Positions 1 to 60,180 of a stretch of DNA of 64,000 nucleotides are shown here, in pieces. Below the pieces are notes generated by a model that searched no databases, was not told the DNA's origin, and saw nothing but the letters and a program-made list of their open reading frames with translations. The stretch is from Zymoseptoria tritici IPO323 (Eukaryota; Ascomycota; Dothideomycetes; Mycosphaerellales; Mycosphaerellaceae). The stretch lies in the NCBI RefSeq assembly GCF_000219625.1, contig NC_018210.1, positions 620,001-684,000 of the forward strand. Direction: 5' to 3'. A program made the translations under genes and the position numbers. How positions within the stretch are numbered: the first letter of the stretch is position 1; each line of letters starts with the position of its first letter.

Positions 1-3000
1 GTAACTAGTAATCGATTATTCTCTACCGTTAAGCCGATAACGTCGGTTTATCTAGCTTATCGTCCGGATCTATTTGTTCCGGTCCGCGCTTCTAAGCTTA
101 ATTAAAAGGGAAGAGTTAATTGTCCGTATACTTAATGCCTTAGACACCGACAAACGTTTTTATAATGTCCTCTCGTATCTCTTTAGGTCGGTTATAGGGG
201 ATTATATATTTAATATTACTATCGTCCTAAATTAGAGTACCTCTTCGGAAGGATTCCGGAATTTCGACCTTATTACCTTATCTAGCGATGTAGCTTATGT
301 ATATAGCCTCTTATAGGTTATAAAATTAATATACTTCTATAGCGTAGTCTAGTTCGACATTAATCGTAAGATTAAGTAGCACTACTATGTTTAGATCGAA
401 GTCGTAGAGTCCTTCGTACTTTATCTTCTTATTAAATACTATATCTCTAGTCCTAATTACTCTGTCTAGGCTTAGGATCTAGATCCGAAAGATGTTATAT
501 CCCTCGAAGCCGACTAGGTATCCGATTCTTACTCGCTCTATTATCTTCTCCCTTTTAGGGACGTCTTTTAGATTAGTTTTATATATATACGCTCTCGACC
601 CGAACTTATAGATGTAGGCGATATCTAGCTTCTAGTTTGTCGCTATCTCTTATATAGATTTATAACCTAATGCTTACGTTAGGGCCCTATTTATAATATA
701 GGCTACTATTACGTAGGCTTTATTCTAGAGATCCTTTAGGAGCCTCGATTCGATAATTAGTGTCCTTGCTATCTCGACAATAACGCCGCCGGCTCGTTCT
801 ACTAGGTCCTATACTTACGTATACGGTGCTAAGGGCTTCTACATTACTAATCCCTTACGGAGTACGGATTAAAACGTTAATCCGTACTTAGGGTCTACGT
901 CCGATCTAAGGGCGAATATTTTACGACCTATACTCTTTATAAAGGTCTAAAGTTCCTCGAAGTATCGTACTAGGCTCGCTTAATTAGCATTCGGCATCGT
1001 CTAAACGAAGTATAGGTATGTCGTTAAATCTACGGCGTAAAACATATATTTATCTCCGTTCTTTACTATATTAAATTCTACGATATTAGACGCAACGTCG
1101 GAAAAAGGTGCTAGCATCCTAATCTTAACCGGTTTTCTTTAAGAAACGACTCTTTTCGACTTACTCTAGGTATATAAGTAGCATTCGTACATTTTAGGGG
1201 CCGCATCTCTATCTTTTAGATACTCTACGCCTTTAGCGGCTCGATAGAGTTCTAATATACGATTACCTCCGATGTAGCCTATAACTCGGTACTATTAGGC
1301 CTAAGAGAGGACTCTAGGTCGTCTCGTAGCCCTACTATCCGTCGCGAAGGCGACGAGCTATTTGTCGGCTAGTTAATCCCTTTTTAACGCTATCTCGACG
1401 CTTAGGGGTTAACTGTCCTCGTTAAGTAGCTAGTTAATAATTTTAATCCTTACTTTCGGCGTAGTCGCTAGGTTTAGGTATAGTAGGCCGCTATATCGCT
1501 TAATCTTAGTAACAACTGCTCCGGACTTATCTATCTAGTTGTCGGTCCTCTCGTCTAAGAAGAGGCCGAAGTCTCTATATAGCCTAGTCGATACGATGTT
1601 AACGTAAAATCCGGGTATATATAGGACGTCCCTTAGTAATAGCGTAATCGGCTTACCTAAGGGTAATAGGAACTACACTTTTGCCGTACCTCTTATAGTA
1701 GCCTTTATCTATTAGTTCCCGGTGTAAATCGATACGTTATATAGTATATTAACGACCTCGAATCCCGCTATAGTTAGATTGTTTACGATATAAACGTTTA
1801 AGCTACTATCTAGAAGCTATCGATTCTTCTCGTCGTAAGCTTCGGTCGATATTACTCTAAACTAAGTTACCGCTCTAATAGCGTAACTGCTATACTACGT
1901 CTTCGGTTCGTTAGAGACGATTATCCTACTTAAACTAGGTGTTCCGGACCTAGTCTATTCCTTTAGTACCTTAGTAACCTTATAGTAATCCTTTAGTCCT
2001 ATAGTAATAGGGTCTCTAAATTTTATCTACTAGAGGCACTTAGCCTTGTCCTTCTTAAGGATATTCCGGTAGTTGTCGAGGAATTTCTTATCCTCTTTTG
2101 TTATATCGGCTTTATTAGGTCGAAGACGATAGTTAACGATAGGACAATCTCCTAGTTTTAGATACGCTTTGTCGGCGTCTTTACCTATATACGGTTAATA
2201 GGTCCTGTCCTTATTATTAGGCCTGTTCCCTCTATTTTAATTACCTAAATTAGTCGTTACGTTAAATATTACCTAACCTATTCCGGTAATTTAAGCCTCT
2301 TTAGACCTAAACGTAGCGTTTGTACGGAACTACTTAGCTAAGTTGCTAGGGTCTCTATTAATAAACGTAGTTACGTCGTAAACGTATTAACTAAGATTAT
2401 TCTTGCTTGCTAATAGTCTTCTTATAGTAATATTAATCTTATCTTCTACTATCTGTACGAAGTCGTCTTTTAGGATACTAGCGGCCGGATAGTATCCTCT
2501 AACTATCTTCTTTTTAAGCTTAATCTACTTCTATAGGTGTATAAGGATGTTAGATAACTTAGGTCTAGACAACAGGTCGTTATATTATTTAGAAAGTATT
2601 CTACGCCTCGTTGCGTCGTCCGGCGCGAATATCTTAGTTACGAAGTCTATCTAGCTTACTAGTGTCCTAGACTAATCGTTAAGGTCGTCTAGGTACGTTA
2701 ACGGAATAGTCCGGCTAAAGTATTTTTTAAAATCTTCTTTCTTCTTCCTAAACATCTCGTAGATAACGGATTCTCTAGTATAGTTCTTTATTTTAGAGTC
2801 GAAAATAGCTTTATTTTGTTGCTACTTTATAAAGTTCTCGCCTTCTAGAAGTTAAGTGTCTATAAGGCCTAAATCCGTCTTATTCGGTATATTTAGGACC
2901 TTTAGTTCTAGAGTTCGGTCTACGGCTATACCGTTTATAACTATTAGGGTTGTCTCTCGTATATATTACTATATATAGTTATTAATTGCCGCCGACTTAG

Positions 3001-27809: not shown

Positions 27810-28022
27810 TTTGGTGAGTTGAGTTGGTGGTGGTCGTCTGGGTTTTCGAACGTGTTTGTAGTGGAAGGCTCGTTTGATGGGAAGAGAAGGAAAGAGGTCA
27901 TTGGAAAAGCTGTGAGCTATGTACGCATGCTGTCCCATGTAGCCATGGGCCAGGAGCCGACTGCTGGGCAGCATCAAGTTAGCCGATGCCTGGGTTGCGA
28001 ACCCGCAGTCCTCCATCTCAGC

Positions 28023-28033
28023 TAGAGGTGTTG
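28023..28033 (+). repeat. Left terminal inverted repeat of the hAT element
   Basis: TAGAGGTGTTG, an exact inverted match to 30757-30767; the preceding 8 bases are the target duplication. Confidence 0.9.
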
Positions 28034-28046
28034 CCCTTAATGCACG

Positions 28047-28085
28047 CACTGTGCACACAGTGCATTTTGCACTGTGTGCACAGTG
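28047..28085. repeat. Subterminal 16-bp inverted repeat (hairpin) in the left end of the hAT element
   Basis: CACTGTGCACACAGTG is followed by a 7-base spacer and its exact inverse CACTGTGTGCACAGTG. The GTGCAC core recurs many times at both ends of the element, and multiple short subterminal repeats are the usual transposase binding sites in hAT elements. Confidence 0.8.
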
Positions 28086-30688
28086 GTTTCTAAAAGGTCC
28101 GTTGTGCACACACCGGCTTGCTATAAATAGTAATCCGTAACCGATATAGAGCCCTTATAACCTCCTTTAATCTTATTGTTTATGCTCTTGCTATGCCCTT
28201 ACTATCCTGTGTATATCTCCTGCTCTGTAAATAGCAGCGTGCAATGTTGCGTCGTAGAAGAAGCTAGTAGATAAGGGCGGTGTCGGTAGATAAGTTGTTA
28301 GACCGGTAGAGGTATAAAGAGGTAAGGAATATACTATAAAAACGGTTAGTTAGTCCTTTATTGCATCCTTATTTATTAACTAACATAACGAGCTCTTACG
28401 CCTCTAGCTCTTAATCCACCGCCTTCGACGAGCTAATAGACCGTGTAGTGTTGCCGACTAAGAAGCGCAAGACTAATAAGGGTAACTACTAGAAGGAAGT
28501 CGTCCGAGACTTTACTGCTAGCAGCAGGAATTACCCTTAAGTAACATGCATCTATTGCTCGGATCGATAGCATTCCGGATCTGCTAGTCGTTATGTTACA
28601 TACCTTTAGAGGTGTTAGAGACTGCCGGCGAGGTTGTATCTAGTCTACTAACGCCACCTCTTAGATCCGGACGCGGTCGTGAACTCGGACTCTAAGGGTG
28701 AAGACTACAACGACAGTTAGCAAGACATAAGGGTGTTAGGGCTAGTAGACTCTATAAACGATCGTAACTACTATGCTGCTACTAAGGCCTGCGCAGAGTA
28801 GATATTCGCCGCCGGCTTGCTACTGCATACTGTTAACCATCCGGTGTTTAAGAAGTTTATAAAACTCGTCCGGCTAGCCTTCACACCGCTAACTCGATAG
28901 TAGCTTACTAAGACGATCCTACCGCGCTAATATAAGACTCTTAAGAGCCAGATTAACGAGGAGATTAGCAAGGCTAGAAGGATTACGTTGCTAAGTAACG
29001 GCTAGACCGACAGAGCGAGCAGGAGCGTTGTTAATTACCTCGCGGTTACTACTAAGGCTGCGTATTTCCTATCGTCGGAGTGGGTCGGTGCGGAGCGTAG
29101 CTCGGCGCAGAATTATGCGAGAAGTCTTATGCGTGTCGTCCAGAAGTTTCCGCGTAGCAAGGTAGTTGCAATAACCTTAGATAATGCGAGTGTAATAAAG
29201 GGTGCTTAATAGAAGGTTAGTTTAGAATCGAAGAAAATAAAGCTTAGCTTTAAAGTTTAGCGATCTGTAGATATCTACCTAAAGGGGCTAAGCGTCCGCT
29301 ACGGTCCGCAATTTCGGCTGCACCCCGCATGCTGTAAATTCTCTAATTAGCTCGCTAACAGCTTAGTTAGATATCCGAGTAGTATCCTTAAATTGTCGGA
29401 CTTAGCTGCTGCTCTTACTAACTTAACCTTCTTATAAACGACCTTTACGAGGAGTAGCTCGTTAAACTTACCTTCCGCGACGCTTAGGCGGTCGCCGAGT
29501 ACTTTAAGAACACCTTTATGCCTAAGGAGTTAATTATTAAGATTAGTAAGGGCCGTGCGAAGCGCTTCTAAGTGCAAGGTAGTGTGCGTTAGCAAGGCAG
29601 ACTAAACTGCGCAAAATCAGTCTAAGACAACCGCGTCTACATTAAGGAGCTAGTTAAGAGGCACTAGGATCGACTGCTTTATAGCGCCGACGCAAAGTAG
29701 AGGGCAGCATAGCGTAAGATCTTAAAGATCGTAGATAAGACCGCTAACTTCTAGCATAACCTTAAGCGTTACATTAACCTTATAAAGCCCTTCCTTAAGG
29801 TAACTATTGCTCTTAAGCACGACTACCCTCGCCTTAGCTATATATATAGCAACTTCCGGTAGCTATATAATTAGTCGTAGAACAACGGTCTGCTTACTAA
29901 CAACGAGATTAAGCCTATGATTAACATGCGATACGAGGCTCTTTATCACCTCCTTATGCTCGTCGCTTACCTCGCTAATGTTAAGGAGCGTAGCAAGGAC
30001 TGCAACGCGTTCGTCCTCGTTACTAACGACTAGCTTTACTCGATAACTAGCTTCCTTGTCGACTTCTGTGCTGCTTAACAACGCACTAGCACTCTTAAGG
30101 GATATAGCGGTTAGCTAGAGTCTACGGTCGAGATATACACTCGTGCTAGTGCCCTCTTAGCTGATCTACAGAGCCTTCGCAACCGTAATAGTGTCTTTAG
30201 CAACTTAGTTATATAGAAGTCCGGCTTAGCTAAGAATATGTTAACAACGCAGTAGTAGCATAACAACTTCCGGACGAGCTATCCAGAGCTTACCGCCCTC
30301 TGTTTATTCGCTCTAGCAGTATATCTAATAATAGGGCCGGCTAAATGCAATTAGTTAGCCTATAGCTTCATTTAGAGCCTCCGCCGCAATCGCCTTAGCT
30401 ATAAGGTCCTTAAGATGCTTATCTATATGTTCTAGAACCTTCGCATTAAGTATCGCGTTAACAATAGCATCCTTAAGGACATTAAACGTAATTCTGATAA
30501 TATAGCAGGCCCTGCAGAGATGCTAGAGCTATTAAGGGAGTTATAAGATAAGGAGCAGATAACAGCAACGTTTACAGAGGTTGTTAAAGAGGCGTTATTA
30601 ATAGATCTAGCACTAACAGAGCGATAGCAATAAACAACGAGCACTATTTACTAACATGCAACTTCCTATTAAGGTTAGCGTGGCCACT

Positions 30689-30708
30689 GTGTGCACCATG
30701 GTGCACAC
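30689..30708. repeat. 20-bp perfect palindrome in the right subterminal region of the hAT element
   Basis: GTGTGCACCATGGTGCACAC equals its own reverse complement and carries two GTGCAC cores like those at the left end. It retains CCA and TGG, which are almost absent in the RIP-mutated interior. Confidence 0.8.
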
Positions 30709-30756
30709 CAGTATGTACACGTGCACACCGCCATTTTGCTTACATGCACCGTGCAC

Positions 30757-30767
30757 CAACACCTCTA
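30757..30767 (-). repeat. Right terminal inverted repeat of the hAT element
   Basis: CAACACCTCTA on plus, the exact inverse of the left terminus, followed by the second copy of ATCTCAGC. Confidence 0.9.
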
Positions 30768-30775
30768 ATCTCAGC

Positions 30776-31290
30776 CGGATCTGATGTCGATCTTAGCCAT
30801 CGATGGCCTGTAGTCTCGCACCGTGGGCCTGCTCACGTGGTGGTTGCTCTCTCGTTCTTTGCTGGGAACAAGCTCGAATGAATGAAGACCATCTGGGCTC
30901 CCCTTGTCGACGTTCCGGCGAAGCCGCCTGGGCTCGTATCCGAGGATCTGGCTACGTCAGCTACGATGAATTGACAGTGCCCGATGCTCCAAGTCATGGT
31001 GGCTAGGAGCACTGGTCCACGCCTTTCAGAGTGTGTAGCTGTTTCGAGGCAGGCAACAGGAACAGTGCTGTATCGAGAGAGAGCCTGATCAGATCGCTTA
31101 TGTCAGCAGCTCGGGACGCTCCGTCTCCCGCGCTACTTAGATTTCATTTCACGACACAGTCCTCCTCCGCCCCTTGTTCACTCATACTCCCGCCGTTTCG
31201 AGCAATGGAGTTACAGGCTCCAGTCAGACGAAGCGCCAGCCGTCAGGTCATCAAATGATCGATTGAAGATACGCGCTCGGGCCACTTGAC
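30776..31290. other. Intergenic between hAT element and kinase
   Basis: Normal host composition resumes right after the target duplication. No gene recognised; the last 150 bases are the likely kinase leader. Confidence 0.5.
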
Positions 31291-48999: not shown

Positions 49000-50239
49000 A
49001 TGGCAAACCTCAGCCCGCCTCCTGCGACTCGCGACGACTTCGAGACCGCAATCATTTGCGCACTGCCAGAGGAACGCGACACCGTGGAGGCATTGATGAC
49101 AAGGGACTTCAAGAGTGAGGGAAAGATCTACGGCAAGTTGGAGAACGATGACAACACCTACACACTCGGCGTGCTGGGGAACAAGCCCGTGGTTCTGGTC
49201 GCGCCTCGCGACATGGGAACTACGAACACACGAGATCTCGCGCGAGGTCTGAAAATCAGCTTCAGTAAGGTAACTTGGGCTTTCGTGGTCGGTATCGCGG
49301 GCGGTGCACCTTTCGTTCCGGACGGCCCGGGTTGGAAAAAGTCGGGAATTCAGCTTGGAGATGTCGTGGTCAGCACGCAGGTGATTGAGTATGACTTCGG
49401 ACGGGAGTTTGAGAATGGCTTCAAGAGGAAGACTGAAGTGGAGAGTGTCCTTTCGCGCGCTCCTCAGAAGGTGGCCAATTTCATCAATCAGTTCAAGCTT
49501 GGAAGAAGCGCAGCATTCCGTCGCATCCTGGCAAAGACGAATGCTGACCTCACTGTAAGTGCACCCGAAAGAGCTCAGACTCCCATACCAAGCGAGAAGA
49601 ACTTGCTGACCCTTTGAAACTAGAGTCACAGTAACCTTCAGACAGGCAAGGGCGAGGATCACGAGCATCCTGGTGCAAACGCGGATCACGTATACGGCCT
49701 CGGGTATCGCCACAAGCACCAAGACCCTGAGGCCTGTACGAAATGCAGCCAATGCACGGAGTGGTATCATGAGGTATGCGCGACAGCTCTCACGGCCGAT
49801 TGCCTGACTCTCGGCTGCAAGCCGCATCACAGCAACAACGACATCAAGGAGGCCCAAATTCACTTCGGGAGATATGCCTCAGGCAACGCTGTGATGAAGA
49901 GTGGACATCGAAGAGATTTGTTGATCCGGGACGAAGGAGTCATCGCGTTCGAGATGGAAGGTGCTGGCGCATGGGAAGTGTTCGGCACTATCGTGGTCAA
50001 GGGTATTGTCGACTACGCGGACAGTCACAAGAACAAGAAGTGGCGTGGGTACCCGGCAGCACGGGCAGCGCTGTGTGCTGCGGCGATGATTGAAGAGATT
50101 GAGCTTCCGGAGAAGCCACGCCCAGGTCAGCGACTCGCTACTTTATTTCTACGACTTGACAACTTGACGGTCCATTTTTCCCCTGCCTATCTTGCTCCGT
50201 GCAGTGGCTGGTGACTTCCCTGCTCATTACGGTTATTCA
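49000..50239 (+). CDS. NLR part 1: nucleoside phosphorylase (PNP_UDP) domain with a Cys-rich insertion
   Basis: ATG 49000 starts exon 1 (49000-49554), which is followed by a 69-bp intron (GTAAGT, GCTGACC, TAG) and exon 2 (49624-50125); a further exon may run to about 50239. The sequence FETAIICALPEERDTVEALM opens the fold; PRDMGTTNTRDLA, GIAGGAP and later VIAFEMEGAGAWE and GIVDYADSHKNKKW are the purine/uridine phosphorylase landmarks found at the N-terminus of fungal NLRs. Between them sits CTKCSQCTEWYHEVC with further cysteines, resembling a zinc-binding PHD-like knuckle. The coding continuation (NB-ARC, TPR) lies beyond the Copia insertion at 50268-56625. In such receptors the N-terminal domain is the candidate effector of immunity or heterokaryon incompatibility. 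Confidence 0.85.
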
Positions 50240-50267
50240 ACTGTACCTGTCTGTCGTGGGTGGTACA

Positions 50268-50438
50268 TGTTGTGATTGGACTTAAGCTAAGTGGAAGAGG
50301 ACCTCTAATTAGCAGGTATATATTGTTATGCAGAGAGAATCTTAAGTGTGAGATTCTTACTTTAGCTATCTGTGTGTAGGAATGCCTTAGCACTAGTTAC
50401 GTGCACTTTACTAATAGTTAGTCTAATAATCTACAATA
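50268..50438 (-). repeat. 3' LTR of the Copia element in the NLR
   Basis: 171 bp, collinear with 56455-56625 without gaps. The two copies differ at 12 sites, all transitions of the CA-to-TA or TG-to-TA kind. The copy's left, host-facing end is the less mutated. Confidence 0.93.
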
Positions 50439-50449
50439 CTCCCCTATTA
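50439..50449 (-). other. Polypurine tract
   Basis: On minus the bases directly before the 3' LTR read AATAGGGGAG, the expected plus-strand primer of an LTR retrotransposon. Confidence 0.65.
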
Positions 50450-51510
50450 GCAGCTGCATTATTACGAGCTGTCTGTTACCTAAATATAGCAGGTATTTAC
50501 CTACTACGTAGCTAATGCTCAGCTTTAGCTTGTTAAAAAGTATCTTCTTCTAGCTTTTTTTTATTCCTCTACTTTATAATCTATACCTCTTATCTATTTA
50601 GCTAATTTATTAGCTAATCTATTATCTATCCCTTATAGCTATTAACAATATAATTTATATTACTAGCTATAGCTTCTAGAAGAAGAGCAGCTTTCTCTGT
50701 CCCTAGGAAAACCTTCTAGCAAGTTATCGATAAAGTAAGAGCTGTTAGTAGTAGAGATCTCCTATAGATCTACAAAGATAGTTCTGTAGTATATTAGACT
50801 ATATATTAATTTATTAGAGGAGAGATAAATAGATACTATAATAGAGTAAATGTTAGGGCTTTTAGTTCCTTCTCTTTTATAGCTTGCTTTAATAGGTTTA
50901 TAGCTAAGCTTAATAAAGATCTCCTTACTACAGACTTTATTAATATAGTAATAGAGGAGCTATATAACCTAAGGGAGTAGGCCTTCCTAGTAGAAAACTA
51001 CCCTAGTCTAACAACTCCTAATCCTTAGGGTTTTGTATTATACTATAACTAGACTCCTCTTAGCTAAATATTAAGCTCTAATAAGGCAGAGATAAAGTAG
51101 TAGTTAGTAGCATAGCATCCTATATATATTCTCCTTAAAATCCCTTCTTCCCTAATAGAAACTAATATTCTCTTAGGCTTTAAGTTAAGATTCTAGGGGA
51201 ATTAGCTTAGTCTTTTAGTAGTAATTTTAGGGGGGCAGGCTGCAGGTTCTAGGACATGCTCTAATGCTTTTAGGTTTTTATAGAAAAGTTTTCCTTTAGC
51301 TAGGTGTTTTTCTTATAGTTTCTTAGATACTTTTATAAAGGTGTATAGTTGCCTCCTTTCCTTTATACAGATAAGAATAAAATAAGTGTTCTAAGTATTA
51401 TGCTTCTTAGTTTTGTAACAAATAAAATAGTATAATTCTAGGGAGGGAATCCTTCTTAGGTAGGAATGCAGGTATTAAGGCATAAATTTAAGAGCGATTT
51501 CCCTCTTCTT
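50450..51510 (-). pseudogene. Extra segment between pol and 3' LTR of the Copia element, possible additional decayed frame
   Basis: Standard Copia elements have pol close to the 3' LTR. Here more than 1 kb intervenes. One minus-strand frame runs nearly its whole length interrupted only by TAG and TAA, and contains protein-like stretches such as KHLAKGKLFYKNLKALEH. Because RIP turns TGA into TAA, the lack of TGA is weak evidence; base pattern alone cannot prove coding. No family is recognised. Confidence 0.4.
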
Positions 51511-51516
51511 ATTAAG

Positions 51517-51587
51517 GGCTAGTTAGTCTAGTAGTATAATTTCTAACTACAAATTAGAAGGTTACAGGTTTAATTCCTATATTAGCC
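51517..51587 (+). pseudogene. RIP-mutated tRNA-Cys sequence inside the Copia element
   Basis: A 71-base cloverleaf can be drawn: acceptor GGCTAGT paired with ATTAGCC (one G-T), anticodon arm TCTAA / TTAGA around the loop CTACAAA, and a T-loop position reading TTTAATT. Reverting only C-to-T and G-to-A changes would give a GCA anticodon and the canonical TTCGATT, so it descends from a tRNA-Cys(GCA). In its present form the anticodon reads ACA, the D- and T-stems are weakened and the pol III B box is spoiled. It lies about 70 bases beyond the end of pol, antisense to the element. Not expected to be functional. Confidence 0.72.
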
Positions 51588-54500
51588 TCTCTTATGTGTC
51601 TATATTAGCTGCCTAATACGGACATATAAGTATCTTTTTGCTAGATTTATAGATCTATATATTAGAGGATAGTGTTTAGGGATTTTAGTTTTGTTAGACA
51701 GTCTACAAGCTGTATATCTGTCCTTACAAACTCTACCTTAATACTCCCCTTATTATGTTGCTCTCTGCAGTAATAGTTCCTAAGAGAGACATATCTTAAT
51801 CTTTTAGAGTTAGCATAGTTTTCTATAAGGCTAATAGCTAATTAATTGTCTACTTTAATAAGGATAGTAGAAATGCTTTTAGCCTAGGTAAAGGGCTAGA
51901 GCTTATTAATAAGATTCCTTACCTAATTTACTTCTCTTATTGCCTTAGTAAGGGAGAGGTACTCTGCCTTAGTACTAGATAGTACTACTTCTTTCTACAG
52001 TTAAGATCTTTAGATAACTAGGCCTCCTACAATTTTAAAGAGCATTCCTAAGGTAGACCTAGATATACTAGGATTACTAGCAAAGTTAGAGTCTAAGAAT
52101 GCTTTAATCTAAATTTGCTCCTTAGTTTTCCTATATATAAGGTACTTATTAATTATGCCTGCAACATATCTCTAGATGTGTTTAGCTACCTAAATATACA
52201 AAGGTCCTAGGTTCTAAAGGAACCTTGCATAGTAGTTAACAGCAAAACTAATATCTAGTCTAGTATAGTTTAACAGATGTTGCAGTTCCCTAATAATCTT
52301 ATTAAAGAGATTATAGTCCTCCTTTGTTCCCTTATCCTAGAGGGGTTTAAGGAGGGTGTTAAGAGGGTACTTAACACTCTTTGCATTACTAAGACTATAT
52401 CCTTAAAGTTTGTCTCTAGAATAGTGTTCCTAAGAGATAGATATAGAGCTATCTTTCCCTTCCTTTAGGTAAAGTCTAAGAAAGATATTAGTATTAATAA
52501 CCTTAATTATGTACTTCTGCTCTAATCCCTTAATTAGCTTGTTAATCTTATAGTCTAACTGTCTAAAGATCTAGAAGTTATCTATATAAAGGAGAACAAG
52601 GATGCCTTTCCCTTAAAAGAGGCAAGTATTACTAACAGTTCTTATTAGACTAAGCTTTTAGAGAGTATCTATAGTATCGTAGTGCTAGAGAGCAGCTGCC
52701 TACTTAAGCCTATACAGTCTTTTCTTAATATATATAATATACTTGTAGGCATCTTTCTTAAAGAGATAAGCTCCCTCTAGTAGCTTAATAAAGATCTGCT
52801 TATTTAGGTTTAGATTTAGGAATGCAGTCTTAATATTAACTTATCTCCTCTTCTAGCTAAAGTTAACTAAAAGGGACAGAAGTATTCTCCCTATTACAGC
52901 TCTTAGGGTAGGAGCAAAGGTATTAATATAGTTAAGTCCTTTCCTTTATGTAAATCCCCTAGCTATCTATCTAGCCTTATACTTCTCTATAGTTCTATCT
53001 AGGAGCACCTTAATCTTAAAGACCTATTTCCCTATAAGAGGGACTCTCCCCTTAGGGAGGGTGCTAATAAGTTTCTATTTAAGGCATTCTATAGACTTAA
53101 GTAACTTAGCTTCCTTAATAATAGCTTTCTCTTATTCCTTGTAGTTAGATCTAGAGAGAGCTTCCTTAACTGTCTTAGGATTAGACAGATTAGGATTTGT
53201 TGCTTTAAGTCCTATCTTCTAGATCTTGCTGTAGTCTTTTCTTATAACTAATCTTCTACTTCTTAAGAATCTAAATGTGCCTAAGCTTTTAGGACTTGCT
53301 TTATTACCTAATTTCTTAGGTCTCTTAGGGCTTCTCCCTACTTTCCTCTTTCCTATAATATAAATATCTAGGAAGGGAGTTATAGTATAATCTTAGAGGT
53401 CTTCCCTTTTAAGGTAATTCTCTGCTAATACTTAATATTATAGCTATGTTAATAAGGCATTAGCCTGCTCCTAGAATCCCTTAGGACTTCCTTAGAATCC
53501 CTTAGGACTTCCTGTTTCCTTAGAAATATGCTCTCCCTAAGCTAGCTAGGAGGCTTCTTTATACTTAGTAGCCTCTAGCTAATTAGGCTTAGACTACTTG
53601 TGTTAGTTATCCTAGGACTATATGTCCTAATCTAATATTTGCTCCCCCTAAGATATTAAAAGGGAGGCTTAGTTTCTCTCTCTCTACATAGTATTAAACA
53701 TATTCTCTACTTCTTAAAGATAAGAAGTAGTAAGAGGTTAGGCATCTTGCCCTTAGGCATCCTAGCCCTAATCTTAATTCTTAGTGTAGATAGTATAGAC
53801 TTCCTATTCTGTAGTAATAGGTTGCATTAGTCGCAGGAAACTCTCCCCCTAGAAGTCTAGGGCAGCAGGTATTATATTATATACCTTATCCTTATTATGT
53901 ATTATATAAGGAGAGGTTATAATCTTGTGCTAAAACCTAGCAAGGGCAGATAGTTTAAACTTCTAAACTATATAGTTAGTTAAAGTGTTCTCCTAGAATC
54001 CTAGATTCTAGTATTTCTCTACTCTAGGATAGAACTTCTATAAATTAGGTCTCCCCTAATTATGCAGATATGCTCTGTATCTAAATCTCCTAACCTTTGT
54101 TAAATTAATATATAGAGTTCTAGTATTAAGATCTTAATTAAATTCCTAAAGAGGAATCTTGTTAGTTAACAGGCATACTAGCCTATTAGTAAGGAAGATT
54201 GTATATATAACTACAAAACTCTAGAGAGGGAGAGGTAGGCTAGAGTTAATTATTATTACTCTTACCTTGTTAAGAATAACCTTATTAGATAATTCTGCAA
54301 TTCTATTCTACTTAGGAGTATAGGGAGCTAAGAAATCCTATCTTAGTCCCTTATTCTTTACAAATGTAATTAGATTATTATTGTTAAATTCTCCTCCTCT
54401 ATCTAAGAACTAGATCTTAACTATCTTTTTATACTAGTTAAATGTCTTAGTAGTCTATTTCTTAATAATTTATGCAGCTTATAATTTAAGCTTGCAGAAG

Positions 54501-56438
54501 ATAGCCTATCTCCTTCTTAACTTTGCATTAGTAATTATAAGGATGTACTTGTATCTAAAGATGTCTAGTAGAAAGATTAGTCCTATAATGTTAATATAGA
54601 CCTTATCTAATAAGGATTAAGGTATTAGTCTTAGAGTTCTTAATACTACTCTCTGTAACCTTGCAAGCTTGTATAGCTTATAGTGCTTAAGTGTAGATAT
54701 ATTAATCTGCTTAAGTCCTTAGACTTAAGCCTTTATTATACTAAGAATCTTGTTCCCTATATAGCCTAGTCTCTAGTGCTATCTTGTTATATTAGCCTTA
54801 GGCATAGCAAAGGCTAGATAGGACATGTTCCTATTAGTTATAGAAGCAACTTTAGTACTCCCTTTAGGGAGAGAGATAGTTACATTCTAGAGGATTAGAA
54901 TATTATAAGTAGACTAAACCTTGCCTATCTTCTTGTTATTCCTTAGAATACATAAAGATAGCTTGTCTAAGTAGACCTTATACTTTAGCTAGAGAGTCTC
55001 TGCTAAGATAAGGTTGTAATTAGAGTTAGGGGAGTATAACACATCTTGCAAGGTAATGTTTAACTTATTCCCCTTATACTTTATTATAATCCTTATACTT
55101 CCTAAGTATATAACTGTACTTTATCTAATAGCTTAAGAGAACCTAATTAGGGTTTCTAGGGGTTTAAGGTCTAAGAACTAGGACTTGTTATTAAAGAAGT
55201 AGTATAATATACTAGAATCCTAGATAATAGTGTTACTCCTTTATATTCTAGCGGCAGCAATTGCTGCTCCTGCAAATAAGCTGTCTAAATTAGAGCCTAA
55301 GCCTATATTAAAAGAGGAGATAGGCTTAATTGCTATAGCACCCTTTCCTCCCTTCTTGTTATATCTCTTACTCTTGTCTTAGGACTTCTTCTTGTCCTTA
55401 TTAGGTCCTCCTTTTCCTCTATATACCTAGGACTTTAGGGCCTTATTAGGGTGCTTCTTAAAGTAATCTATATTTATATAGATATAATAGGTATACTTAG
55501 TATACTAATTATTATCTACTACAGTACCTCTAAATCCTCCTGCTATCCTCTATGTCTATAGAGGAGGTTCCTTAATTAATAAGGTAATTAGCTCTTTAAG
55601 AGTTATATTCTTAATATAATAGGATTGTTTCTAGCTTCTTAGGTATTCTAGATAGTAGAGGCCCTAGATAAAGAATAGCCTAATCTACTTATTACTAAAG
55701 GTAAGCTTTAAGACTAGAATAGTCTTAGACCTAGAGTATTATTCTATTATAGAGATATACTTATAATGCTACTTCTAGAAGTCCTTATAGTACTTCTAAG
55801 TATTTATTCCTTAGATCTTAATATTACTAATTCTAAGAATCCTTAGGCTATTATAAATGTTTATAGTTATAATAGGCCTATAGGTAGCTGTAATAGTATT
55901 ATATAGTTCCTTAGCTGTCTTCTCTATATCCCTAAAGTTAGGCCTTAGAGATTAATTAATCCTTTTGCTAATAATCCCGTATACAATTAGGTTATACTTA
56001 TGCTAAACTTAAAGAGGAGTTAGTCTTAGTCTACTAGTTAGAATAGGTTCTGTTACTAGAGTATCCCCTCCTTCTTTTTAGGAAGGAGTTAGAGCCTAGG
56101 AGGATAAAGCAGTACTATTCTTAGTTAGTAAAGAGGGATATCTAACTTTAATTCCTAGCTTTAGTTAGGCAGGGCACTAGGGAATATTATAAAAGACATA
56201 GCCTAATACCTCCTTGTCTATAAGGGCTGCTTTAAGCATCCTTAACTAGTCTAAGAAGTTGCTTCCCTTTCTTAGGACTTTATTCTCCTTTGTAGTTTTA
56301 AACTTATTAGCCTATATTGTAGCTATTATTATAACTAGCTCTTTCTCGGCTCGCTAGTTAACTGTCTAAATAGTATATAGTAAGGTTCTAATAGCTGCGC
56401 TTAGAACAGACAATTCTTCCTTAAGTGTGCAGTAGTTA

Positions 56439-56454
56439 CGCCGGGCTTATAACC
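56439..56454 (-). other. Primer-binding site (half initiator tRNA-Met)
   Basis: On minus the bases after the LTR read GGTTATAAGCCCGGCG, the Copia-type complement to the initiator tRNA-Met anticodon arm with one G-to-A change. Confidence 0.75.
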
Positions 56455-56625
56455 TGTTATAATTAGACTTAAGCTAAGTAGAAGAGGACCTCTAATTAGC
56501 AGGTATATATTATTATGCAGAGAGAATCTTAAGTGTAAGATTCTTACTTTAGCTATCTGTGTGTAGGAATGCCTTGGCACTAGTCACGTGCACTTTACTA
56601 ATAGTTAGTCTGATGATCCACAACA
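56455..56625 (-). repeat. 5' LTR of the Copia element in the NLR
   Basis: 171 bp, begins TGTTATAATTAG and ends CCACAACA. The right, host-facing end keeps the unmutated bases that are changed in the other LTR. Confidence 0.93.
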
Positions 56626-56712
56626 GTACATTAATGCTGATGACCAGCACTGCTTTCAATGGCTAGAAAATCATTACGTTGCTACTGACAGAATTTCGAT
56701 CAATCAAGCTGA

Positions 56713-59700
56713 GTCTCCATCTGCCCAGCAAACATACTCCAGCGCGATACACCTCAGCAGCTTTGGCTGCCCCCCCGGCAGGCCAATCCACGCTACACTG
56801 GCTACACGGACGTCCTGGAACGACTGCAGAATTGCATGCTACCCCAGGACGATGGACGGGACTCTACCCAGGCTGTCTTTGTTCTTTCGGGCATGGGAGG
56901 CGTTGGCAAGAGTGAGACTGTGCTGCAATTTGTCAGCAAGAATGAAAAGGCACTCCGTCAAAAGTATGTATACATTACGCTTTACATGAATAACGGATGG
57001 CTTATGATTGAGCAGATTCTGGGCTGTGCTCTGGGTGGACAATAGCAGTGATATCTCCACTCGAGCCGATTTTAAAAGAATCGGCAATCTATGCGGCTGG
57101 CCCTTGGACGACACAGACGCGCTCTACGGCGTAAAGGATCGGCTCGCCAGCTTGACGACATCGACACTTCTTATCTTGGACAACTGCGACGATACCGAGA
57201 CGGATTATAGCCGTTACATACCAAACGGCACCCAGGTCAGTGTAATACTAACCACCAGATTGTCCGATGCCGGAAAGTACGCAACCGTCGGTTCGCAGGG
57301 ACAAGGGAGAAAGCTGTTCCACAGGTTACGAGGTCTGGACGAGGAATCTGCTGTCAAGCTACTGCTGGATGCGTCAGAAGTCCAAGAGCCAGGTCAAGAT
57401 GATCACGAGCAAGCGAAACAAATAGGCTTCGCCCTTGAGTTTCACCCTCTTGCGCTCACGATTGCGAGCTCGCTCATTCGGAGCCGTATGTATTCGCTGG
57501 AGGAGTACGCTAATGCTCTCGGAAGCCGGCTCACTCAGAAGGAGCTGCTGGATACAAAGTCCGAGCAAGCGAGATATCAAAAGCTGAGCGCTACGTTTGA
57601 GGTGTCCGCGGAATGCCTCCAGCGTATGGCTTCGACTGACCCATCGGCCAAAAGAGCGTTGGCCCTTCTGGATGTTCTCGGTTTTATGCATCATAAAGGC
57701 GTGGCTGAAGAGATCTTCGTGCAGGCGTGGACTTACGAGGAAGAGCTTCTTTCAAAGTGGATTGAAGACGACGGCGACGACGGCGACGTCCTTCTGTCCA
57801 GATACAATAACCGGGAATGGCATGACGATGACCCGTACGATCTTTCGCCCCGGCACATAGCTCACAGCCGATCAGTCTTCCCCTTGGCGCCACCCGGTGA
57901 ACGAAGGCAGTCATTCCTCGATCTCATCTAGAACGCCTGTCACTCGTGACTATCAATGCAGCCAGCAACTCCATCTCACTCCATCATACAGTCCACGCCT
58001 GGGCGAGAGAGCGCAACTCGCGCCCCGGCGAAACTTGGATCGCTGCTGCGTCAATTTTGGCGCTATCTACGCAGGAGGACGTGGATTGGTCATTATTCGA
58101 TGCCCGGCTTGCTCCGCACCTTGAGACAAGTTTCGCTGTGTTGCAAAATTTGGGCAGCCAGATCTCTAGCCAGCTGGATGTCTGCGCACTTTGCTACGTC
58201 TACGCATTGACGATGTACTGGGCGGACAGTGCACATACGGTGGGCGTCTCTGAGTATATTCTCGAGCTCAGTCTGAAGTGCAAGCTACCTCAAGCGAACA
58301 TTCTGAGAGCACAGCGCCTTTTGGGAACGGCGTATGGTGTCGACAGACGGTTCCCTGAAGCAATTGAGATTCTAGAGCGTGCCGAGAGGTCACACAAGGA
58401 AGCATGTCCAGAATATCATGAGGTTGGAGCGAGCATCCGGCACGCGCGTGGTCAGGCCTATCATGATCAGGGTCAGATCTCGAAAGCACTCGATAAGCTA
58501 GAGTATACCGTCAAGGCCCAGACAAAGCTGCAAAATCTGGACCTGCTTGCTATTCAGCACGAACTCGGAAGAGCGTACCTCGCCAACGGACAAACCTCAG
58601 CTGCTATTGAGACTCTGAAGCACGTAGTCAAGTCCGAAGAGATGCTGCCTGAGAGCGATCCGGATCGGCTATCCTCTCAGCATGCACTCGGGAGCGCTTT
58701 GTACGAGAAAGGACAGATTCCCGAAGCCATTGAGATTGGAGAGCACGTGGTGAACGTGCGAAGAGAGAGCTTGCCGGAGGACGATCAGACTCGGCTGGCA
58801 TCTGAACACTCCCTCGCCGTATATTACAGAGAGGACGGACAGACTTCGAGAGCTGTCGAAATGCTAGAACATGTGGTGAAAGTCCGAGACATGCTACCTG
58901 AGAGTCATCCGTGGCGGCTGGACTCTCGGCATGAACTTGCGAGGGCGTTCTTCAAGAATGGACAGATCTCGAGAGCTGTTGAAATGCTAGAACATGTGGT
59001 CAAGGTCCGAGAGATGCTTCCCGAGAGTCATTCAGATCGACTGCGCTCTCAGCATGAACTCGCGGTGGCTTATCTCGAAGACGGACAGATCTCGAAAGCT
59101 GTCGAGTTACTAGAACATGTGGTAAAACTCCGATCGATGCTACCCGAGAGTCATCTGGATCGGCTGAAGGCTCAGCACAGTCTCGCGGTGGCTCACCTCG
59201 ACAACGGACAGATCTCGAAAGCTGTCGAGATGCTAGAACACGTCGTAAAACTCCGAGAGATGCTACCGGAGCTTCACCCAGATCAGCTCAATTCTCAGCG
59301 CGAACTTGCACTTGCATACCAGAGCAACGGACAGATCAACGCAGCCATGGCCGTCTGGTATATGGTGTACACAGTGCTCGAAGCAGCTGTACCCACGAAT
59401 CATCTTGACCTCACCGCGGCCGAAGATCGCATGATTCGGACGGCACATATTCACGCCTCTACCGATGCAGAATCACATCACAGCGAGAAAATGGTCTGTC
59501 CTGGCATAGCATCGATGTTAGAGCGAGCGCGTGCTAGAATCATGTCAGCAGAAAGCACCTCGGGCCACGCTGGCAGCATGCCATCGAAAGACAGCCTCGT
59601 CGAGATGGCACTTAGGAAAGCATTGATGTTAGAGCAAGCACGCGCTGATTCCATGTCAGCAGAGGGGACCTCGGGGTACGCTAGCGGTATACTCTCCGAA

Positions 59701-60180
59701 GACAGCCTTGTCGAGGCATTGACGCGAGAACAAGTCTCTGCAGGAGCCGATTCTGATCCGGAGGCGCAGCGAGTCTCTTCTTCCTCCAATACCATCGGAG
59801 AGCAACCGTCTGCTAGATCGACCTCAGCAGAGCAACTCTTGGACCAAGCGCACGAGCAGCAGGAAGTCCAATCTTCCGAAATCTGGCTCGAAGATACTAA
59901 TCGGCACGAGGAACTCGATACAGAGCCGGGTTATGCTGGCCCGGCCTCGACGACACGACAGACTTCTACCGGACTTGAGCTAGCGGAACAAAGCGACCAG
60001 AATCGTGCCCCCCAGACCATGAAGCTGTCGGAAGAGCGGCTCAGAGACTTGGAGCTGAGCAGCGAATTCATCCCTCGACAAATTTTTGCCAGCTCTGCCA
60101 AGGGAAAGGAGGCCGCGGGTCGCAGTCCTGCTTTGTGGAGAAGAATGAAAACAGCTTTGCGGCCGCGGCAACGTGGCTGA
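56713..60180 (+). CDS. NLR part 2: NB-ARC ATPase and TPR repeats, with a frame break near 57.92 kb
   Basis: The P-loop frame is open from 56713; exon to 56963, intron 56964-57015, exon from 57016. The NB-ARC begins NPRYTGYTDVLERL, with Walker A GMGGVGKSETVLQF, Walker B TLLILDNCDD, an ILTTR sensor and a GLPL-like FHPLALTIAS. After a winged-helix region the frame ends at 57929-57931, while the next frame, open across the same place, continues ERLSLVTINAASNSISLHHTVHAWARER, the usual bridge to the repeats. A one-base deletion or a very short intron (35 bp, unlikely) explains this. Seven TPR units follow, then a Ser/Glu-rich tail. The 5' end and part 1 are separated by the Copia insertion; the receptor is probably inactive. 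Confidence 0.85.
58471..59328 (+). repeat. Seven TPR units of 39-42 codons (usual period 41), last four nearly identical
   Basis: Units start at each GQ-[IT]-[SP]-x-A. The last four, each 41 residues (123 bp), share AVEMLEHVVKVR-like helices and MLPESH turns with few changes, and the DNA is similarly alike. The first three units are more diverged (39, 41 and 42 residues). Confidence 0.85.
59515..59712 (+). repeat. Two-copy repeat in the NLR C-terminal tail
   Basis: Two units of about 40 codons share the order MLE-x-ARA, SMSAE-x-TSG-x-A and S-x-DSLVE. They lie after the TPR array in a Ser/Ala/Glu-rich tail. Confidence 0.65.

What the first reader, a model, noticed from the sequence alone, without database searches (positions are those of the whole stretch)
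49000..60180. A PNP/NB-ARC/TPR receptor split by a RIP-mutated Copia element
An N-terminal nucleoside phosphorylase domain ends about 30-140 bp before the element, and a collinear NB-ARC plus TPR array starts within about 130 bp after it. The 5-bp duplication GTACA proves insertion into a formerly continuous locus. The insertion lies between the first two domains, either in or at the edge of an intron: donor-like GTCAGC (50126), GTACCT (about 50240) and the duplicated GTACAT itself are all candidates. The locus therefore either lost the receptor or must splice out more than 6.3 kb, and the PNP part may now be made alone.
Basis: partly seen in the sequence, partly recalled or inferred. Interest (0 to 1): 0.82.

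Follow-up and report, generated by a model that had tools for sequence, protein, structure and literature searches.

The report
Fungal NLR gene split by retrotransposon
In the reference strain of a wheat-infecting fungus, a self/non-self receptor-like gene carries a dead 6.4-kb retrotransposon in the intron between its first two domains and, separately, a frame break before its repeat domain, so it probably no longer makes a full receptor; this is an instructive but fairly ordinary case of gene decay.

Summary
The window is chromosome 9 of Zymoseptoria tritici IPO323. A 6,358-bp Copia element (two 171-bp LTRs, GTACA duplication, minus strand, 12 stops within its RT match) sits in an intron between a PNP exon and an NB-ARC exon. 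The junction can now be fixed: donor 50126, acceptor 56728, phase 1. Exons joined there give 735 residues that match the annotated protein of isolate ST99CH_3D1 at 734 of 735 positions. Isolate ST99CH_1E4 and other Dothideomycetes also have PNP and NB-ARC in one protein model, so the locus was most likely one gene. NB-ARC and TPR lie in different frames, and the 3D1 protein ends at the same stop codon. Full-length receptor was therefore probably lost through a frame break that the transposon did not cause, and splicing out the 6.6-kb intron would not by itself bring it back. The likeliest product in IPO323 is a 381-residue PNP protein ending at a stop in the host intron, before the element; if splicing works, a 735-residue PNP-NB-ARC protein. 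No RNA or isolate DNA was available, so the empty site in 3D1 is inferred from its protein model.

The parts
49000..49554 (+). exon 1 of the NLR gene (ATG at 49000), first half of the PNP_UDP_1 domain
   Evidence: PF01048 E 8.7e-07; joined exons match P0004
49555..49623 (+). intron 1 (69 nt, GTAAGT...CTAG)
49624..50125 (+). exon 2, second half of the PNP domain with a Cys/His-rich insert; ends in phase 1 at the donor
   Evidence: PF01048 0.00079, below cut-off on its own; junction residues as in P0004
50126..50267 (+). 5' part of intron 2 (donor GTCAGC at 50126), ending with the target-site copy GTACA 50263-50267
50212..50214 (+). TGA that would end PNP (381 aa) if intron 2 is retained; lies before the element
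50268..50438 (-). left LTR (3' LTR of the minus-strand Copia)
   Evidence: 40 scored LTR matches in the genome
50439..56454 (-). Copia internal region, RIP-mutated and dead
52361..53062 (-). Copia reverse transcriptase (RVT_2) with 12 in-frame stops
56455..56625 (-). right LTR (5' LTR of the minus-strand Copia)
56626..56728 (+). target-site copy GTACA (56626-56630) and 3' part of intron 2, acceptor AG at 56727-56728
56729..56963 (+). exon 3, start of NB-ARC with P-loop GMGGVGKS (codons from 56890); no in-frame ATG before 56836, in-frame stop at 56710
56964..57015 (+). intron 3 (52 nt, GTATGT...GCAG)
57016..57931 (+). exon 4, rest of NB-ARC, ending at the stop codon 57929-57931 that isolate 3D1 shares
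57901..60180 (+). TPR open frame (759 aa, another frame), no stop inside; carries the VHAWARER (MHD-like, name recalled) stretch and the TPR array

Best explanation
This is a decayed allele of a fungal NLR gene (PNP effector domain, NB-ARC switch, TPR repeats). Shown: the exons on both sides of the Copia join in phase and equal the annotated protein of another isolate at 734 of 735 residues; the Copia lies in intron 2, now 6,603 bp, which would be 240 bp without the element and one target copy; NB-ARC and TPR are in different frames, with the same stop as in isolate 3D1. Inferred: the frame break arose before or independently of the insertion and had already uncoupled TPR; the Copia landed in a tolerant intron and was mutated by RIP, which fades toward its outer edges and spared the exons; in IPO323 most transcripts keep the intron or end in it, giving PNP alone, while rare correct splicing would give PNP plus most of NB-ARC without the MHD-like stretch or TPR.
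For: Exon joining: 735 aa, 1 difference from P0004 of ST99CH_3D1, same end. ST99CH_1E4 (P0003, 1148 aa) has PNP, NB-ARC and TPR in one model. Junction at or within a few residues of the same place in models from Zasmidium (P0026), Cladosporium (P0006), Friedmanniomyces (P0008, P0033) and Elasticomyces (P0011, P0036). In the window the conserved LPRxxNxxYxGYxxVLERL-like stretch lies before the first in-frame ATG, so exon 3 needs an upstream exon. The IPO323 public model MYCGRDRAFT_95627 (P0001) starts only at the P-loop Met; its contig length 2,142,475 equals our C9. The 1A5 model P0002 starts at 58213, after the break. Copia, duplication and RIP. The flanking exons show no RIP signature.
Against: No RNA and no DNA of 3D1, 1A5 or 1E4 could be read: the 3D1 model could in principle have been drawn across a long intron, so its empty site is inferred. 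The TPR frame stays open for 759 codons without a stop, more than expected of a long-dead part. The public IPO323 model bypasses the break with an intron (P0001; candidate), which might be real. The 1E4 model itself lacks 77 residues around the MHD-like stretch, so whether any Z. tritici allele is fully intact is unknown. A whole-genome NB-ARC family search did not ring at this locus (2 matches elsewhere), so the NB-ARC is weak when read exon by exon. Some relatives have the two parts annotated as separate loci.
Confidence: 0.72

Rival explanations
1. The receptor is still made: the 6.6-kb intron is spliced and an extra intron (as drawn in the public IPO323 model) skips the frame break, giving a shortened PNP-NB-ARC-TPR protein.
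For: A candidate GT-AG intron exists across the break and fits P0001. The TPR frame has stayed open, and the GT and AG of intron 2 are present.
Against: The skipped stretch is coding in the 1E4 model and has counterparts in Cladosporium and Friedmanniomyces; the 3D1 model does not use that intron; introns above 6 kb are exceptional in filamentous ascomycetes (recalled).
Confidence: 0.12
2. PNP and NB-ARC/TPR are two neighbouring genes, and the fused models are merge errors of gene callers.
For: Elasticomyces LTS10 has them as consecutive locus numbers, and LTR15 has PNP two numbers from a HET-NB-ARC-TPR gene. PNP-only proteins of relatives end at the junction glycine or one residue later in 38 of the 57 best hits.
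Against: In the window exon 3 has no in-frame ATG before the conserved pre-P-loop motif. Fused models in five genera join at or near the same place. Related NB-ARC/TPR modules are fused to HET domains in models (P0012, P0016, P0056).
Confidence: 0.08
3. The insertion alone silenced an otherwise intact receptor; the frame break is an assembly or annotation error.
For: 1E4 reads through the break point in frame.
Against: The same stop ends the protein of 3D1, another isolate, and P0002 of 1A5 starts after it.
Confidence: 0.05

Closest known systems
Fungal PNP_UDP/NB-ARC/TPR NLRs (Dyrka et al. 2014, PMC4986451, passages seen; PMC12258605, passages seen)
   Same: N-terminal PNP_UDP_1, NB-ARC, TPR; variable repeat number between isolates
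   Different: this allele has a Copia in the effector/NB-ARC intron and a frame break before the MHD-like stretch and TPR; surveys such as PMC12258605 remove NLR candidates with frameshifts or premature stops
RLC_Deimos Copia of Z. tritici (PMC9970103, section 10 and passages seen)
   Same: high-copy Copia, most copies below 40% GC, some inside genes; that paper counts 38 copies inserted in IPO323 genes, three of these annotations being Copia-like themselves
hetA of Aspergillus fumigatus (PMC11138114, section 7 and part 1 of section 10 read)
   Same: both alleles have PNP_UDP, only one has a predicted NB-ARC; alleles differ in domain content
   Different: hetA was tested by expressing the alternate allele; nothing is known of incompatibility for the present gene; no transposon is mentioned in the parts read

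Membership tests
fungal NLR (PNP_UDP / NB-ARC / TPR) | N-terminal effector domain PF01048 | tested here: met
   two exon pieces, the second below cut-off; P0004, 734/735 identical: E 6.7e-11, above cut-off
fungal NLR (PNP_UDP / NB-ARC / TPR) | NB-ARC with P-loop in frame with the effector domain | tested here: met
   P0004 NB-ARC E 8.6e-11 and exon joining, provided intron 2 is spliced; piece by piece the match is below cut-off and a genome search missed it
fungal NLR (PNP_UDP / NB-ARC / TPR) | C-terminal repeats in the same frame | tested here: not met
   stop at 57929-57931 ends the NB-ARC frame; TPR lies in another frame. Met in the 1E4, Cladosporium and Zasmidium models. So the window holds a broken allele of this family
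MTA/SAH-type nucleosidase fold | profile match to solved nucleosidases; conserved FEMEG Glu and DYADSH Asp | tested here: inconclusive
   profile A1 matches 21 solved chains named nucleosidases, best E 3.1e-09, in two separate stretches (about 18-132 and 252-341 of 354); E295, M296, E297 and D318 invariant in 21 rows; their catalytic role is recalled; a single-sequence search found none
Copia LTR retrotransposon | LTR pair, 5-bp duplication, RVT_2 | tested here: met
Copia LTR retrotransposon | integrase upstream of reverse transcriptase | not tested
   open pieces too short: 7 pieces gave no Pfam match at E 1
RIP-mutated repeat | C-to-T transitions between copies, CpA preferred | tested here: met
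   LTR pair: 12 of 12 differences CpA/TpG. 30 copies: 397 of 404 variable columns are C/T or G/A; contexts CpA 190, CpT 139, CpC 50, CpG 18, so CpA leads but is not alone
RLC_Deimos | identity with the published consensus | not testable with these tools
   consensus not held
het (incompatibility) gene | allelic differences trigger rejection | not testable with these tools
   needs crosses or expression

The most novel reading that the evidence does not exclude
The split is not simple loss but an allelic state. The Copia fixes the gene in a PNP-only form that is also reachable by keeping the domain-boundary intron, and PNP-only, PNP-NB-ARC and PNP-NB-ARC-TPR forms segregate as different recognition alleles, as with hetA of A. 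fumigatus where only one of two active alleles has a predicted NB-ARC. In support, PNP-only proteins of relatives end at the junction glycine or one residue later in 38 of the 57 best hits, and the G and GQ endings were gained or lost at least 5 and 7 times on the tree. Against: only 8 of the 63 next-ranked hits end so, the hits are related to one another, a splice donor read as codons by itself favours such stops, and the window's own frame runs 28 residues past the glycine.
Probability: 0.09. Interest if true: 0.65.

Novelty: new member of a known kind. Interest (0 to 1): 0.36.

Why it matters
It shows an NLR allele of a plant-pathogenic fungus being taken apart between its modules, with related states in named isolates. 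That makes it testable whether broken NLR alleles are mere pseudogenes or working alternative alleles. It also warns that the public IPO323 model (MYCGRDRAFT_95627) is a fragment lacking PNP and the start of NB-ARC, so an NLR count for this species made from that model could miss a PNP-NB-ARC-TPR gene.

Tried and rejected
Donors at about 50240 and at the duplicated GTACAT: rejected, since either would add residues absent from the 3D1 protein. NB-ARC/TPR as an independent gene starting at 56836: rejected because the conserved pre-P-loop motif lies upstream of it. RIP damage of the exons as the cause of the frame break: rejected, exon composition is normal and the break is a frame change, not a C-to-T stop. 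Pfam on seven short open pieces of the element found nothing; a whole-genome family search settled it. A viral-contig scan for PNP relatives confirmed none (12 pattern matches, none by tblastn). The first copy alignment mixed strands and is not used; it was redone. The stop-by-stop count over copies failed and was not repeated; one search printed its table and then failed only at saving a file. Paper searches: the number 95627 with Zymoseptoria, 0 papers; Zymoseptoria tritici with NLR and NB-ARC, 21 papers, 15 listed; insertion, intron and incompatibility terms, 30 papers, 12 listed; Iso-Seq terms, 6 of 6 listed. None of those listed is about this gene by title or start of abstract; the unlisted ones were not seen.
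Full report
What the window is. The window is G000:C9:620001-684000 of a 39,686,251-base assembly in 21 contigs. A public protein of Zymoseptoria tritici IPO323, MYCGRDRAFT_95627, matches the window's NB-ARC/TPR part at 95% over 80% of the query, and its contig length (2,142,475) equals that of C9. The assembly is therefore IPO323, chromosome 9.

The element. LTRs of 171 bp lie at 50268-50438 and 56455-56625, with GTACA directly outside both. They differ at 12 of 171 positions, all CpA->TpA on one strand or the other; at positions 5-83 the left LTR keeps the unmutated base, at 122-170 the right LTR does, so RIP fades toward the outer edges. The reverse transcriptase matches RVT_2 at window 52361-53062 on the minus strand with 12 stops inside. 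The family is large: 40 scored LTR matches of 167 candidates and 40 scored internal matches of 87 candidates at 95-100%, our own copy included. In 30 of those 40 internal copies, 1,595 of 1,999 counted columns were invariant, 397 were C/T or G/A (CpA 190, CpT 139, CpC 50, CpG 18), and 7 were other. A published high-copy Copia of this species, RLC_Deimos, has most copies below 40% GC and 38 copies inside IPO323 genes (PMC9970103; passages and section 10). Our element may be that family; this was not tested, and the paper's burst copies seem unaffected by RIP, unlike ours.

The gene. PNP_UDP_1 lies in exons 1 and 2, NB-ARC after the element, TPR further on (the second PNP piece and the NB-ARC piece are below the curated cut-offs on their own). 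Joining 49000-49554, 49624-50125, 56729-56963 and 57016-57931 gives 735 residues and a stop; this differs from the annotated protein of isolate ST99CH_3D1 (P0004) at 1 of 735 positions, and P0004 passes both cut-offs. The element with one target copy is 6,363 bp of a 6,603-bp intron, leaving 240 bp. With that intron retained, the PNP frame ends at TGA 50212-50214 after 381 residues, before the element. In the own genome the TPR query matched only this locus (1 match, 5 candidates scored); the NB-ARC family search gave 2 matches elsewhere and missed this one.

Was it one gene? Fused PNP-NB-ARC models exist in ST99CH_3D1 and ST99CH_1E4, Zasmidium cellare, Cladosporium inversicolor, Friedmanniomyces endolithicus and Elasticomyces elasticus, joined at or within a few residues of the same place. 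In the window the conserved stretch before the P-loop is in frame but upstream of the first ATG. Against this, Elasticomyces LTS10 has the two parts under consecutive locus numbers, and LTR15 has PNP two numbers from a HET-NB-ARC-TPR gene. The weight of evidence is for one gene.

The second lesion. The NB-ARC frame stops at 57929-57931; the TPR frame (57901-60180) is another one. The 3D1 protein ends at the same place, and the public 1A5 protein P0002 starts only after it. In 1E4, Cladosporium and Friedmanniomyces models the stretch is coding and continuous. The public IPO323 model skips it with an intron (P0001). The 1E4 model lacks 77 residues just downstream, around the MHD-like VHAWARER stretch. 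So the models show damage or doubtful calls at the NB-ARC/TPR border in different ways, and no fully intact Z. tritici allele was shown.

Alleles. PNP-NB-ARC of 1E4 and 3D1/IPO323 differ at several residues in every full 60-residue block (51-57 identical, one block 56 of 58). The first 180 residues of the compared TPR part differ at 1 position. Beyond that 1E4 has 123 residues (3 x 41) fewer and diverged repeats; 1A5 lacks exactly 41 residues relative to IPO323. Mosaic alleles with variable repeat number fit recognition NLRs (positive selection on repeats of P. anserina NLRs: PMC4986451, passages).

PNP-only endings. One search listed 120 of 2,008 PNP hits. Of the best 57 (P0121-P0177), 19 end at the junction glycine, 17 at GQ and 2 at GE, 38 in all; 13 end elsewhere, and 6 (truncated, fused or without a clear tail) were left out of the tree. 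44 of the 51 classified come from sources labelled jgi, lgn or ena, where frames are presumably read without splicing. On a tree of 55 rows the G and GQ labels need 11 and 10 changes, at least 5 and 7 forced by well-supported branches; these are gains or losses against all other labels. Control: of the 63 next-ranked hits (P0178-P0240, none dropped) 4 end in G, 2 in GQ and 2 in GE, though several others end one codon after what looks like another donor. I take this as a sign of a widely kept phase-1 intron at the PNP/NB-ARC border, and only as a weak hint of a functional PNP-only product.

Function. A profile of 21 PNP rows matches nucleosidases of known structure (best E 3.1e-09). Reviews state that PNP domains of this kind hydrolyse ATP in immune systems (PMC11249213 and PMC12881547, passages); the primary paper (Rousset et al. 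2023) was seen only in their reference lists. In A. fumigatus both hetA alleles have PNP_UDP but only one a predicted NB-ARC, and hetA was validated by expression of the alternate allele; hetD (PNP_UDP alone) was mapped but not validated (PMC11138114, section 7 and part 1 of section 10).

Verdict. The interpretation needs amending: the frame break before TPR is shared with an isolate whose model is not interrupted between PNP and NB-ARC, so the Copia is probably not the cause of loss of the full receptor. Interest is moderate.

Noticed in passing
50439-56454 versus 1-3000 and 28001-31000: CpG is nearly absent in the Copia (observed/expected 0.09; mean 0.03 over a 2-kb piece of 30 copies) but elevated or normal in the other two RIP-affected stretches (1.67 and 1.12). 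One genome shows two mutation signatures, although mutation in a dim2-carrying isolate is reported to hit CpA, not CpG (PMC8016269, passages). The founder may already have been CpG-poor.
   Followed up: partly
51517-51589: ARAGORN calls a tRNA-Cys (anticodon aca) inside the Copia, outside the RT match.
   Followed up: no
1-2500: RIP-affected repeat with 19 further near-full-length copies at 88-94% in the genome; by my comparison of the two lists, 15 of the 19 lie about 0.3 kb from an RVT_2 match, so probably another Copia family.
   Followed up: partly
28300-30600: AT-richer, RIP-like stretch; one other full-length match (93%, contig C6) plus fragments.
   Followed up: partly
57901-60180: TPR length varies between isolates by multiples of 41 residues (1A5 minus 41, 1E4 minus 123), with a near-identical first part next to diverged PNP-NB-ARC: mosaic alleles.
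   Followed up: partly
exon 2, about 49711-49818: Cys/His-rich insert inside the PNP domain; H215, H217, C229, C237, C245 and C250 invariant in 21 rows, perhaps a metal site.
   Followed up: no
L026 (G000:C5, around 1873013-1873321, minus): Second PNP-containing NLR-like gene in IPO323: PNP followed by a P-loop-like stretch in an open frame of 1,362 codons.
   Followed up: no
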